A DNA stretch of 64,000 bases, taken from Chlorobiota bacterium (GTDB lineage Bacteria; Bacteroidota; Ignavibacteria; Tepidaquicellales; OLB5). The translations under genes and the position numbers were made by a program. How positions within the stretch are numbered: position 1 is the first letter of the stretch; every line of letters begins with the position of its first letter. Below are positions 2,035-6,974 of the stretch, piece by piece. Location: NCBI GenBank assembly GCA_022616535.1, contig JAKEEM010000008.1, forward strand, positions 1 through 64,000, written 5' to 3'. The notes beneath the pieces were generated by a model. The model was not told the origin of the DNA. It ran no database searches and saw only the letters and a list, made by a program, of their open reading frames with translations.

Positions 2035-2108
2035 GGCAATTTAGAAACCTCAATTTTAGTTCATTTTCGATGTGTTGATATTTTGACATTTTTTCCATTT
2101 TGTTTAAA

Positions 2109-2206
2109 AGTCCCCCTTAAAAAGGGGGAGCTTGAGGGGGATTAGAAATTAACCGGATTGCAGGATTTTTAAATCCCCCTTTAATTCCCTCTTTAGAAGG
2201 GGGACT
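2109..2206. repeat. Inverted pair of dispersed C-rich palindromic repeats
   Basis: Two copies of a ~35-bp element (core TCCCCCTT...AAGGGGGA with a GAGGGGGATT tail) lie in opposite orientation about 25 bp apart. The whole stretch could fold into one long imperfect hairpin. The same family occurs at 6881, inside the gene at 60129-60800, and near 60820-60945. Confidence 0.7.
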
Positions 2207-2357
2207 ATAATAGGTGGTAAATATAACATTCCCCCTTTTCTTTGTCAAGCGCCTTGTGCAACTTTCACCTCATATGTGCCTAATAGAGTAGAATCTGGTT
2301 TTCAGTTAACGGGTTAAGTTATTATTTTTTGATGTTTAATTTTAATTGTGGAATTGG

Positions 2358-2381: not shown

Positions 2382-4247
2382 ATGGCGAAAAAAAAGATTG
2401 AGGAACCTCAAATCACCTTAATTGAAAAGGATAACGGTGATGTTGAGATACCAAAACAGAAAGAATTTTACGAAATTCCAGCGCGTTTTGGCTCTGTGCC
2501 AGTTGATGAGGCACCTTTAGGATATGAAGTTGAAACCAGACGCAGAGAAACAAAAATAACAAAGTTTGAACACGCTTACCCAAAGATTTATTTACCTTTT
2601 CAGGAAGTTGAAAGGGTTAGTTTTGGACACGGTGATAAATTTGAAAAAACTGAATTATTCCCAAAGGGAGCAAACCGCTTATTTTTTGGTGATTGTTTGC
2701 ACATTATGAGGCAATTGCCAAGTAAATCAATTGATTTAATATACATTGACCCGCCTTTTTTTTCCGGAAGAAATTATAATGTAATATTTGGTGACAAAAA
2801 TGAGATGCGCTCTTTTACAGATATTTGGGAAGGGGGTATGCCAGGTTATCTAGTTTGGTTAAACGTCAGATTATATGAAATGAAACGTCTCTTAAAAGAT
2901 ACGGGGAGTATCTATGTACACCTAGACTGGCATGCGAGTCATTATGTAAAGGTTGAAATGGATAAGATTTTTGGATACGATAATTTCGTTAATGAAATAG
3001 TTTGGTGGTACAGGAGATGGAGCAATGCATCAAAGAATTACCAAAGGATGCATGATGTAATATTATTCTATAAAAAAAGTGATAATTACAAATTTAACAT
3101 ACAATATCAAGAGTATGCAAAACCGGAAGTGATTGAGCAAACAGTAAGGGGCGTCATAGAAGGTAAATTAGTAAGATTAAGGGATGAAAAAGGTGATTAT
3201 ATTAAAAGAGAAAAAGAAAATAAAGGTGTACAATGTCATGATGTTTTTGATATCCAACATGTCCAACCAACTGCGAAAGAAAGAATTGGATATCCTACTC
3301 AGAAACCGGAGAAATTATTAGAGAGAATTATTATTGGAGGAACAGATGAAAACGATGTAGTCGCAGACTTTTTCTGTGGTGGTGGTACAACACCAACAGT
3401 TGCACAAAAATTAAACCGCAGATGGGTTGCTTGTGACCAATCAAGAATTGCTGTTTCAATCACAGCTGATAGGATTAATAAACTTGTTTCGGCAAAGGGA
3501 AGGATGTTTGATGTTCCAGACTATACCATAGAACATTGGGGGATATACGAAGCACCAATGCTTGAAAAATATAATGAAAAAGAATTTAAGGAATTTGTTA
3601 TTAAAGCATTTGGCGGTAAAACTGAAAGTGTATCACCATATATACACGGGGTAAGACACGGCGTGCCCTTATACGTTGGTGAGCCATCGCGTAACTCTAA
3701 AATTACAAAAGAAGATGTAAAAGTATTTGCAGAAGCAATATTCAAAGAACGCAATTCTAATTACGGCACAATGATTGCATGGAATTTTGACAGGGAAGCA
3801 AAGCGAGCCGCCGATATTCTATCTGCAAGAGAAAATATAAGGATGGATTTTGTTCGATTGAATTTAATACGTCTTGAAGATGAAGAATTCCGCCAGCATG
3901 TTGTGAGCAAACATAAAGATTATGAAGAACTTTTAACTTTTATACAACCACCTGAAATTAGAATAAATTACACAAGATTAAGTAAATTGGTTTATAAGTT
4001 TGATGTATCCGAGTCAGTGAGCTTAAACAAAGATGGAATTATTGCTAATGTCCAATGGGATTTTAATTTTAAGCATAGGTTTAAATCAACAGATGGATAC
4101 GCATTTTTAAGAGATAAAAAGACTGGTAAACCGATATTGATTGTAGATTATGAATTTAAAGCCCCGGGTAATTACAAAGTTGGTTGTTCTGTTCAAGATG
4201 ACCAGGGGGGAGAAAAAACAGAAATAATGATACTGGAAGTTAAATAA
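2382..4247 (+). CDS. Type III-like site-specific DNA methyltransferase (Mod)
   Basis: A 621-aa beta-class amino-methyltransferase. Catalytic motif IV 'DPPF' is at residues 123-126. The SAM-binding motif 'DFFCGGGTT' comes later, at 329-337, after 'YPTQKP' at 304-309. This order (DPPF, target recognition region, FxGxG) is that of type III Mod proteins, which methylate adenine in the recognition site and direct the restriction subunit. About 260 further residues follow the catalytic core; the last ~70 resemble an Ig/PKD-like beta-sandwich. The stop overlaps the start of the helicase gene by one base, the first of three tight junctions in a four-gene operon. Whether it acts alone or as a restriction partner is inferred from the neighbours. 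Confidence 0.88.
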   Translation: MAKKKIEEPQITLIEKDNGDVEIPKQKEFYEIPARFGSVPVDEAPLGYEVETRRRETKITKFEHAYPKIYLPFQEVERVSFGHGDKFEKTELFPKGANRLFFGDCLHIMRQLPSKSIDLIYIDPPFFSGRNYNVIFGDKNEMRSFTDIWEGGMPGYLVWLNVRLYEMKRLLKDTGSIYVHLDWHASHYVKVEMDKIFGYDNFVNEIVWWYRRWSNASKNYQRMHDVILFYKKSDNYKFNIQYQEYAKPEVIEQTVRGVIEGKLVRLRDEKGDYIKREKENKGVQCHDVFDIQHVQPTAKERIGYPTQKPEKLLERIIIGGTDENDVVADFFCGGGTTPTVAQKLNRRWVACDQSRIAVSITADRINKLVSAKGRMFDVPDYTIEHWGIYEAPMLEKYNEKEFKEFVIKAFGGKTESVSPYIHGVRHGVPLYVGEPSRNSKITKEDVKVFAEAIFKERNSNYGTMIAWNFDREAKRAADILSARENIRMDFVRLNLIRLEDEEFRQHVVSKHKDYEELLTFIQPPEIRINYTRLSKLVYKFDVSESVSLNKDGIIANVQWDFNFKHRFKSTDGYAFLRDKKTGKPILIVDYEFKAPGNYKVGCSVQDDQGGEKTEIMILEVK

Positions 4248-5899
4248 TGCATAATGCTTTTTTAAGATACGAGCAAGACTTTAAGGAATGGGTTGAAGGT
4301 GATTTTCCTGATGTAAATCCATTGACGAGAGATTATCTTGAGCATTTACGCCGCCCGGATGCCCCCCGCAAGCTCTGGAATCACCAATTAGAGTCAGTTT
4401 ATAGAGCTGTTTACAGTTATGAGCTTTTACAGATGAAGAAACTTCTCCTAAACATTGTTACAGGTGGTGGTAAAACCGCTATTATTGGAGCAATTATTGG
4501 CTGGCTTAAAGTTTGTCACAATATACATAAATTTTTACTTTTATGTCCAAACACTATTGTTAGAGATAGATTAGAAGACGATTTTTATAATACAAAAGTA
4601 TTCAGAGATTTTGAGTTTTTACCACCTGGTACAGAACATTTTAAAAATGATTTGGGGTTGCATATACTTGAATCTGGTTCAAGTCCGCAAGGTATACTGG
4701 AAAATGGTATAGTTCTTGGGAATATCCACCAATTATACCAGTCTAACATTAGCGGCCAACGTAACCTTGCGTATATTATGAACTATGTAGAAGAACTTGC
4801 AATTTTCAATGACGAAGCACATAACACCCCTGCAACAGAATATGATAATGTTTTATTTGCTCTTTCAAAAAAATCTAAATTCAGATGCGATACCACCGCA
4901 ACACCGGATAGAGCAGACGGTAAAACACCAGATGCTGAAATGATTTATGAGTTTAATATTCAGGACGCTCAATCGGAAGTCCCGCCAATAATCAAAAGTA
5001 TTGTCGTTTATCAGCCGAGGCTTTCTTCTGTTCAGTTAACATATACGAATCCAGATACCGGCGAAAAAAGAACAGTCGATGAAATGGATGAAGAGTTTGA
5101 AAAGATTGAAAAGGGATTAACCTCAACTCAATGGGTAACGGACCCTGAGCCGATGAGAAAACAAATAGGGATAGCTTTAGATAGGTTAAACGAACAAAAA
5201 GCGAGAGCAAAAAGCATAGGCAATGATTCATATAATCCTATATTATTTGTAGTAGGAATTTGCATAAAAGACGCAGAACAAGCACGCGATATTCTAAAAG
5301 ATGGGTATGGCATTAACACACTGTTAGTTACTGAAGAATCAACCGATGAAGAAAGATTACTTGCTGGATTAATAGGCAAAAAAGGCCAAGTCCTTGAAGA
5401 AGCTAAAAATTTATTAACACGTAAAGTTGGCTTAAGCAAAGCAACACAATTAGTAAAAGAAGCTGAGGAATTACAAGCAGTGGTTAGCGTTTTAATGCTG
5501 CGTGAAGGGTGGGATGTACCTGCTGTTTGTGTAATACTATTGCTGCGAAAATTTTCTTCTCCTGTTTATGGTCAGCAAGTCGTCGGCAGGGGCTTGCGTC
5601 TCAACATAAGAGGTGAAGATGCACAAGAATTTTGCGCAATTGTTGACCATGAAAAACTTGACCATAAATGGTTGTGGGATATAGTCGGCGCAAAAGTAAA
5701 AAGGAACATTGAGCAAGGAAATTTATTTGGAATAGAAGAAGATTTACCTCCGAAGCGCAAAGCTCAATTCGTTGCAAACCCTGATTTGCTAATTGACGTA
5801 CCCGTACCCTTTGTTGAAGAGGAAGTCGATTTTAGCGATTTACTGGACATTGAAGTATTGGAGGCGGATTATCCTAACTGGGAAGATGTAATTGAATGA
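4247..5899 (+). CDS. Type III restriction-like DEAD/DEAH helicase (Res helicase part)
   Basis: Superfamily 2 ATPase of 550 aa. Walker A 'TGGGKT' is at residues 72-77, the DEAH box at 189-192, motif III 'TATP' at 217-220 and a motif VI-like 'QQVVGRGLR' near 445-453. In type III enzymes this domain hydrolyses ATP and moves along DNA from the site. Unlike classical Res proteins (about 900-1000 aa), it ends after the helicase and has no C-terminal nuclease. The missing nuclease is encoded two genes downstream. Its end overlaps the next gene by 8 bp. Confidence 0.88.
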   Translation: MHNAFLRYEQDFKEWVEGDFPDVNPLTRDYLEHLRRPDAPRKLWNHQLESVYRAVYSYELLQMKKLLLNIVTGGGKTAIIGAIIGWLKVCHNIHKFLLLCPNTIVRDRLEDDFYNTKVFRDFEFLPPGTEHFKNDLGLHILESGSSPQGILENGIVLGNIHQLYQSNISGQRNLAYIMNYVEELAIFNDEAHNTPATEYDNVLFALSKKSKFRCDTTATPDRADGKTPDAEMIYEFNIQDAQSEVPPIIKSIVVYQPRLSSVQLTYTNPDTGEKRTVDEMDEEFEKIEKGLTSTQWVTDPEPMRKQIGIALDRLNEQKARAKSIGNDSYNPILFVVGICIKDAEQARDILKDGYGINTLLVTEESTDEERLLAGLIGKKGQVLEEAKNLLTRKVGLSKATQLVKEAEELQAVVSVLMLREGWDVPAVCVILLLRKFSSPVYGQQVVGRGLRLNIRGEDAQEFCAIVDHEKLDHKWLWDIVGAKVKRNIEQGNLFGIEEDLPPKRKAQFVANPDLLIDVPVPFVEEEVDFSDLLDIEVLEADYPNWEDVIE

Positions 5900-6332
5900 A
5901 TTCGAGTACGGCGCAGAAGTTGAAATTACAAAAGTAACTATTGATAGTGTTGAAGGTAAGAGGCTCGCCCAGGAATCCTTTACAGAAATTATAGATGCTC
6001 CTAAATCCACTTCAAAACAAGCAGCTGTTTCACAAAGAGAAATCACAAAAGAGGAATTAATTGAAACATTAAAACATACCATTCGTGATATATCGAATAA
6101 TTTAATTGCGGAAGAGGGTATTGGCTCGCATGAACTAGGATATATTTATAATGTTCTAATGAATCACATCAGAGTTAAGCTTTTGGACGGTAAAAGCGCA
6201 GGATTAGCAAGCGAAACATCTCTTATACATGCCTTAAATCACAGAGGAACCATTACACATAATTTCAAATCAAGGCCCGGACTAATCGCAAGTATCGTGA
6301 AATACAGAAAGGAAATTCAAAATGGCAGGTAG
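5892..6332 (+). CDS. Small middle protein of the split restriction operon, unknown fold
   Basis: A 146-aa protein that I do not recognise. It is mostly charged and helical, with a conserved-looking segment around residues 55-100. Its position between helicase and nuclease corresponds to the linker region of an unsplit Res protein, so it may be that linker made as a separate subunit (inference). It overlaps the helicase by 8 bp and the nuclease by 11 bp in successive frames. No strong ribosome binding site precedes it, so translational coupling to the helicase is likely. Confidence 0.7.
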   Translation: MNEFEYGAEVEITKVTIDSVEGKRLAQESFTEIIDAPKSTSKQAAVSQREITKEELIETLKHTIRDISNNLIAEEGIGSHELGYIYNVLMNHIRVKLLDGKSAGLASETSLIHALNHRGTITHNFKSRPGLIASIVKYRKEIQNGR

Positions 6333-6675
6333 TGAAAGAGGCGATTTTGAAAATCCTAAAAAATCCGCTTACTCGGTTGAAAGATATGATTCTGATTGGG
6401 AAAGACAGTATATGCTTCAATTAGAAAAGGACAAAATGGTTTTGAAATGGACAAAAATTCATGGCATTAATATAGAATATATCACCGAAGCGGGTAACAA
6501 GCGTGGCTACAGACCGGATTTTTTAGTTCAAAAGGTAAACGGAGATGTAGAACTACATGAAGTCAAGGGAGGACAATTCATAGATAATCCAGATACAAAA
6601 AGAAAATTCGAAGCCGCAAAAAACTGGTGCGGTAAACGTAATATGAAATTTATTGTAATCACAAAGAAAAAATAG
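6322..6675 (+). CDS. PD-(D/E)XK nuclease subunit of the restriction system
   Basis: A stand-alone nuclease of 117 aa. 'RYDSDWER' (residues 21-28) supplies the usual upstream Glu, 'RPDF' gives Asp66, and 'ELHEVKGG' gives Glu80 and Lys82, the PD-(D/E)XK metal-binding set. The fold resembles TnsA-like and Res C-terminal nucleases. A good ribosome binding site (AAAGGAAA) lies 6 bp before the ATG, which shows that it is a genuine separate start and not the tail of a frameshifted Res. It probably cuts DNA together with the helicase two genes upstream. Confidence 0.82.
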   Translation: MAGSERGDFENPKKSAYSVERYDSDWERQYMLQLEKDKMVLKWTKIHGINIEYITEAGNKRGYRPDFLVQKVNGDVELHEVKGGQFIDNPDTKRKFEAAKNWCGKRNMKFIVITKKK

Positions 6676-6974
6676 GAACAAAATTGACATATCCGCTCAA
6701 TCCGCAAAAATTCGAGGATTTAAAACGGACACTTTTTACCTCTTAACGGAACAAATCCCCTAAAACCCTACGACTTAATCAAAAAAAGGGGCTAAGGGCT
6801 TAGGAACCCCCGACTGTAAACATTGCAGCTTTAATGATTTTTCATTAATTATTCTTAAAACGCAAATTACAGAATCTAATCCCCCCTTTAGTTAAAGGGG
6901 GGACTGGCTTCTTCTGTGTATTTTGCAGAAACTTTATAACGTGTTTATTTATTTATAGGTTTAAACCGCTAATA
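6676..6974. other. Spacer after restriction operon with one palindromic repeat
   Basis: No gene is seen in these 299 bp. A perfect palindrome (10-bp arms CCCCCCTTTA/TAAAGGGGGG) at 6881-6902 belongs to the dispersed repeat family. It is not followed by a T-run, so termination of the upstream operon by it is uncertain. Confidence 0.6.

What the first reader, a model, noticed from the sequence alone, without database searches (positions are those of the whole stretch)
2382..6675. Type III-like restriction system with Res split into three proteins
Helicase (550 aa), a 146-aa unknown and a 117-aa PD-(D/E)XK nuclease lie in three successive frames with short overlaps and together about equal one Res protein. 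The nuclease has its own good ribosome site, so the split looks natural. The middle protein has no assignment and may be a new subunit.
Basis: partly seen in the sequence, partly recalled or inferred. Interest (0 to 1): 0.65.

Follow-up and report, generated by a model that had tools for sequence, protein, structure and literature searches.

The report
Type III-like restriction system, separate nuclease
This is a bacterial DNA-defence operon (methyltransferase, motor protein and a small separate cutting enzyme); the separate cutter is a conserved trait of a widespread family, but the supposed third 'middle' protein is just the tail of the motor protein cut off by a one-base reading-frame shift.

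Summary
The ORFs are as reported: Mod-like methyltransferase 2382-4247, helicase 4247-5899 (550 aa), middle ORF 5892-6332 (146 aa), nuclease 6322-6675 (117 aa). The two splits have different causes.

Helicase/middle: an artefact of one net +1 frameshift near 5889-5895. In 69 of 70 relatives with the region present the two are one ORF, typically about 670 aa. The 'TTG start' of the middle ORF aligns with an internal leucine codon. The middle ORF is the C-terminal domain of the motor protein, positioned like the helical spacer of EcoP15I Res, and not a new subunit.

Nuclease: the split is natural. In 70 of 70 relatives from many bacterial and archaeal phyla the nuclease is its own gene (112-174 aa, mostly about 116), usually overlapping the helicase gene by 4-14 nt. 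These split systems form one branch, apart from fused Res proteins (support 100). The nuclease has the TnsA catalytic fold and an intact E...PD...ExK site.

So this is a copy, with a frameshift in its motor gene, of a conserved three-gene Type III-like R-M system. Genomes of the same family have an empty site there. I found no description of this architecture in the papers searched. New variant of a known kind.

The parts
2382..4247 (+). Mod-like beta-class N6/N4 amino-methyltransferase (621 aa): DPPF motif, then variable region, then FFCGGGTT motif; PKD-like C-terminal domain; intact
   Evidence: Pfam N6_N4_Mtase 1e-46; PADLOC MTase_II 4e-82 and MTase_III 5e-44; profile matches solved M.RsrI, CcrM, EcoP15I Mod; Mod relative upstream in 55 of 56 loci with room
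4247..5899 (+). SF2 helicase-type motor, N-terminal 550 aa (RecA1+RecA2 plus linker); Walker A TGGGKT, DEAH, TATP, GRGLR present; last residues out of frame with relatives
   Evidence: Pfam ResIII; alignment A1 with motifs invariant or nearly so; profile matches SauUSI and EcoP15I Res chains
5889..5899 (+). site of a single net +1 frameshift that ends the helicase ORF early at TGA 5897-5899
   Evidence: comparison of the junction with 12 relatives that read through it in one frame
5892..6332 (+).
   Evidence: 45-58% identity to the in-frame C-terminal part of relatives' helicase ORFs; predicted mostly helical, residues 601-690 of the L003 model at pLDDT about 90
6322..6675 (+). separate TnsA-like PD-(D/E)XK nuclease (117 aa), active site E27, D66, E80, K82; starts inside the 3' end of the motor gene (11-nt overlap)
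   Evidence: Pfam Tn7_TnsA-like_N 2e-11; E27/D66/E80/K82 invariant in 73 sequences; model pLDDT 91, best PDB matches TnsA, TM 0.73

Best explanation
A horizontally acquired three-gene, ATP-dependent, Type III-like restriction-modification operon: Mod (DNA recognition and methylation), a motor protein of about 690 aa (two RecA domains plus a helical C-terminal domain), and a small free-standing TnsA-fold PD-(D/E)XK nuclease made by translational coupling from the motor gene's 3' end. Most likely working (inferred): Mod recognises its site and methylates host DNA; on unmethylated DNA the Mod-motor complex uses ATP to move or switch state, and the nuclease subunit, docked on the motor's C-terminal domain where the fused nuclease sits in EcoP15I Res, cuts. 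In this genome one net +1 frameshift separates the motor core from its C-terminal domain, so restriction is probably off while methylation persists; the supposed middle subunit is an artefact of that shift. Shown here: gene content, domain identities, conserved nuclease split, frameshift. Inferred: complex, motor use, cleavage, loss of restriction.
For: Of 70 relatives with downstream room, 70 have a separate nuclease ORF and all but one (L035) keep helicase and middle in one frame; most helicase ORFs are 652-714 aa. Junction alignment shows one net +1 shift with the TTG at an internal Leu. Nuclease start overlaps the helicase end by 4, 11 or 14 nt in 49 of 70, which suggests coupled translation. 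Split systems form one branch against fused Res (support 100, one change). In the same phylum the two strong nuclease hits (E 1e-50 or better) stand alone at 120-124 aa, whereas most weaker ones lie in ORFs of about 850-1100 aa. Fused Type III-like operons mod+Res show the same nuclease domain at the Res C-terminus. TnsA fold. Empty site: in G008 and G014 pntB is followed within about 190 bp by the gene that in the window lies after the operon; only 1 of 15 family genomes (the window's own) holds the full system.
Against: No experiment; binding of the nuclease to the motor and Type III-like cleavage are inferred. No reads were available, so the frameshift may be a sequencing or assembly error, in which case the operon is intact. 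A weak TTG start for the C-terminal domain, giving a split but working motor, is not excluded: a GGGAAG stretch lies a few bases upstream. PADLOC scores the Mod higher as Type II than as Type III.
Confidence: 0.85

Rival explanations
1. One reading: three natural proteins; the middle ORF is a new subunit of a three-way split Res.
For: The middle frame is open and non-random. L035 also breaks near the same junction.
Against: 69 of 70 relatives read through the junction in one frame. The TTG is an internal Leu codon; an ATG overlapping the TGA opens a different, short frame. The L035 break needs two shifts within about 40 bases, which looks like errors or decay, not a gene start.
Confidence: 0.04
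2. The frameshift is a sequencing or assembly error and the operon in the living organism is an intact mod-motor-nuclease system.
For: A single net one-base shift with everything downstream still open and conserved; the assembly is in 77 contigs; other loci of the set also show isolated breaks in mod or helicase (L009, L013, L018, L035, L036, L052, L081).
Against: Neighbouring genes compared with family genomes align without breaks, so errors are not common locally. R-M restriction genes often decay for real.
Confidence: 0.4
3. Programmed frameshifting or termination-reinitiation joins or couples the motor core and its C-terminal domain on purpose.
For: Overlap of stop TGA 5897-5899 with the downstream frame.
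Against: No slippery or prfB-like sequence seen at GAA TGA A by inspection; no relative shows the same arrangement.
Confidence: 0.03
4. The nuclease split arose by recent breakage of a fused Res, as the helicase/middle split did.
For: Fused Res proteins with the same nuclease domain exist in the same phylum.
Against: Separate nuclease in 70 of 70 relatives across bacteria and archaea, in one branch with support 100.
Confidence: 0.01

Closest known systems
Type III R-M (EcoP15I/EcoPI, Mod2Res1)
   Same: mod then motor gene order; beta-class Mod; SF2 motor followed by a helical C-terminal (spacer-like) part; PD-(D/E)XK nuclease (PMC4490356)
   Different: Nuclease is a separate 117-aa protein, not the C-terminus of Res; motor about 25% identical to fused Res relatives; recognition and cleavage untested
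BPTD_3080 family restriction endonuclease (NCBIfam NF046055, fused, 970 positions)
   Same: Both helicase and nuclease match this profile (E 1e-19 and 1.5e-11), in the same order
   Different: Both score far below its cut-off of 800 bits; one chain there, two genes here
CglI / NgoAVII R-M systems
   Same: Three genes: methyltransferase, separate nuclease, separate SF2 ATPase (PMC4267653)
   Different: PLD-type nuclease, m5C methyltransferase and Z1-containing ATPase there, unrelated parts
TnsA of Tn7
   Same: Nuclease fold and catalytic layout (TM 0.73 to 1t0f)
   Different: No transposase genes next to it; operon partner is an R-M motor and Mod

Membership tests
Type III R-M | mod gene followed by a motor (res) gene in one operon | tested here: met
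   2382-4247 then 4247-5899; same order in 55 of 56 loci with room
Type III R-M | Mod is a beta-class amino-methyltransferase with target recognition region between motifs IV and I | tested here: met
   DPPF before FFCGGGTT, variable stretch between; matches EcoP15I Mod
Type III R-M | Res is one chain: SF2 motor, spacer, C-terminal PD-(D/E)XK nuclease | tested here: not met
   Nuclease is a separate gene here and in 70 of 70 relatives; therefore called Type III-like, not Type III
Type III R-M | Hemimethylation of a short asymmetric site; cleavage about 25 bp away, two inverted sites, ATP-dependent | not testable with these tools
   needs methylome and biochemistry
BPTD_3080 family (NF046055) | score above curated cut-off of 800 bits | tested here: not met
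   69.7 bits (helicase) and 43 bits (nuclease)
TnsA-like PD-(D/E)XK nuclease domain (PF08722) | score above gathering cut-off and intact catalytic residues | tested here: met
   44.6 bits against 26.5; E27, D66, E80, K82 invariant in 73 sequences
CglI/NgoAVII | PLD-type nuclease and Z1-domain ATPase | tested here: not met
   nuclease is PD-(D/E)XK; no Z1 or PLD match in Pfam

The most novel reading that the evidence does not exclude
A large, coherent and apparently undescribed branch of ATP-dependent R-M systems, spread over bacteria and archaea, in which the nuclease is a small dissociable subunit delivered to the motor rather than part of it; in some members two different nuclease genes stand in tandem (L057, L059), hinting at a hetero-pair that could cut the two strands.
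Probability: 0.5. Interest if true: 0.55.

Novelty: new variant of a known kind. Interest (0 to 1): 0.4.

Why it matters
In Type III enzymes the nuclease is fused to the motor and was disordered in the EcoP15I structure (PMC4490356), so how and when it is engaged is hard to study. A natural family in which the nuclease is a separate 117-aa protein would let nuclease recruitment be tested by adding or withholding one subunit. For annotation, it warns that the 146-aa 'subunit' here is a frameshift product.

Tried and rejected
Phages collection: no match; plasmids: only distant DEAD helicases at 23-53% identity over parts. Pfam, NCBIfam, PADLOC and PHROGs give no significant family for the middle ORF on its own, explained once it was seen to be the motor's C-terminus. 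Extra genes between mod and helicase in about 20 relatives were inspected: they differ from locus to locus (by eye: HNH-like, UvrD-like helicase, AAA-type ATPase, nucleotidyltransferase-like and others) and are not a constant fourth component. Paper searches found Type III diversity (m4C systems with an extra 5' ATPase, PMC8259958) and CglI/NgoAVII (PMC4267653) but no split-nuclease Type III; the library holds only open-licence papers and REBASE was not searchable, so absence is weak. Programmed frameshifting considered and rejected. The long branches joining fused and split Res make the exact root of the tree uncertain.

Full report
Observation. Pfam identifies an N6/N4 methyltransferase, a ResIII motor and a TnsA-like/RE_endonuc nuclease; the 146-aa middle ORF matches nothing in Pfam, PADLOC or PHROGs and has only one insignificant NCBIfam hit. 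The middle frame is clearly coding.

Relatives. One scan of the GTDB contigs with the helicase gave 80 loci from many bacterial phyla and several archaeal lineages. For each locus I mapped the four window proteins and the ORFs that contain them. Of 70 loci with at least 450 bp downstream of the helicase stop, all 70 have the nuclease as a separate ORF (112-174 aa, mostly about 116). All but one (L035) carry helicase and middle through the junction in one frame; most of these helicase ORFs are 652-714 aa. The nuclease start overlaps the helicase end by 4, 11 or 14 nt in 49 of 70, and by 11 nt in the window. A Mod relative lies upstream in 55 of 56 loci with room. A partial locus from the window's own class (G242) shows the same: motor end and middle part in one frame, nuclease separate with an 11-nt overlap. 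Five viral-collection contigs carry the same split system.

The helicase/middle break. Relatives read W-x-x-x-L-N-S-F-E-Y-G through the junction in one frame; the window has W-E-D-V, then a net one-base shift, then L-N-E-F-E-Y-G. The TTG taken as a start is the Leu codon. Everything downstream is open, so the shift is recent or an error. L035 is the only other locus broken near here, and it needs two shifts within about 40 bases. Without reads I cannot tell mutation from error; neighbouring genes show no breaks against family genomes.

What the middle part is. It is the C-terminal domain of the motor. In the model of the intact homologue L003 (A1, 67 sequences, mean pLDDT 84) residues 601-690 are a confident helical domain after a poorly predicted linker. 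EcoP15I Res has RecA1, RecA2, a helical spacer and then the nuclease (PMC4490356), so the position corresponds; homology of the two spacers was not shown. The whole-chain fold search finds general SF2 motors, with RadD first and SauUSI, EcoP15I Res and Type ISP LlaBIII among the hits.

The nuclease. The model (pLDDT 91) matches TnsA best (TM 0.73). E27, D66, E80 and K82 are invariant in 73 sequences. In 395 genomes of the phylum the two strong hits are stand-alone ORFs of 120-124 aa (G242 and the window's genome), while most weaker ones are the C-terminus of proteins of about 850-1100 aa. A tree of 73 split and 11 fused proteins needs a single change between the two states, support 100, although long branches make the root uncertain. 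So the nuclease split is old and conserved in this family.

Setting. The operon sits between pntB and a kelch-repeat gene. In two genomes of the same family (G008, G014) these two are neighbours; in two others (G003, G006) a different gene is there. Together with the single occurrence in 15 family genomes this indicates horizontal gain at a variable site.

Mechanism. By analogy with Type III enzymes, Mod finds and methylates the site, the motor uses ATP, and the nuclease cuts; the conserved gene overlap suggests stoichiometric production of the nuclease with the motor. In this copy the frameshift most likely leaves methylation on and restriction off, unless it is an assembly error. These functional steps are inferred.

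Classification. It works like a Type III system but fails the defining one-chain Res feature, so it is filed as Type III-like. CglI/NgoAVII show that separate nuclease and ATPase proteins can cooperate (PMC4267653), but with unrelated domains.

Noticed in passing
L057:3383-4254 and L059:8142-9004: Two different nuclease genes in tandem after the motor, both with E...PD...ExK intact; the second has a hydrophobic C-terminal tail. Possible hetero-pair of cutters.
   Followed up: partly
L035:7560-7610: The only other locus with a break at the helicase/middle junction; two shifts within about 40 bases, perhaps sequencing errors.
   Followed up: partly
L120:1298-3943: Mod gene interrupted by about 2.6 kb in the region between methyltransferase motifs, perhaps an insertion.
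   Followed up: no
L007, L034, L041, L056, L059, L060, L061, L065, L066, L079 between mod and helicase: Varied accessory genes sit between mod and motor in about 20 loci; perhaps a hotspot inside the operon.
   Followed up: partly
window 3990-4244: PKD-like domain at the C-terminus of the Mod protein, with N549, N556, Q558 and D560 invariant in 32 relatives; unusual for a methyltransferase.
   Followed up: no
window 2105-2240 and 6880-6905: Repeats of the kind 'aaaaagggggagctt / cccccttt' flank the operon.
   Followed up: no
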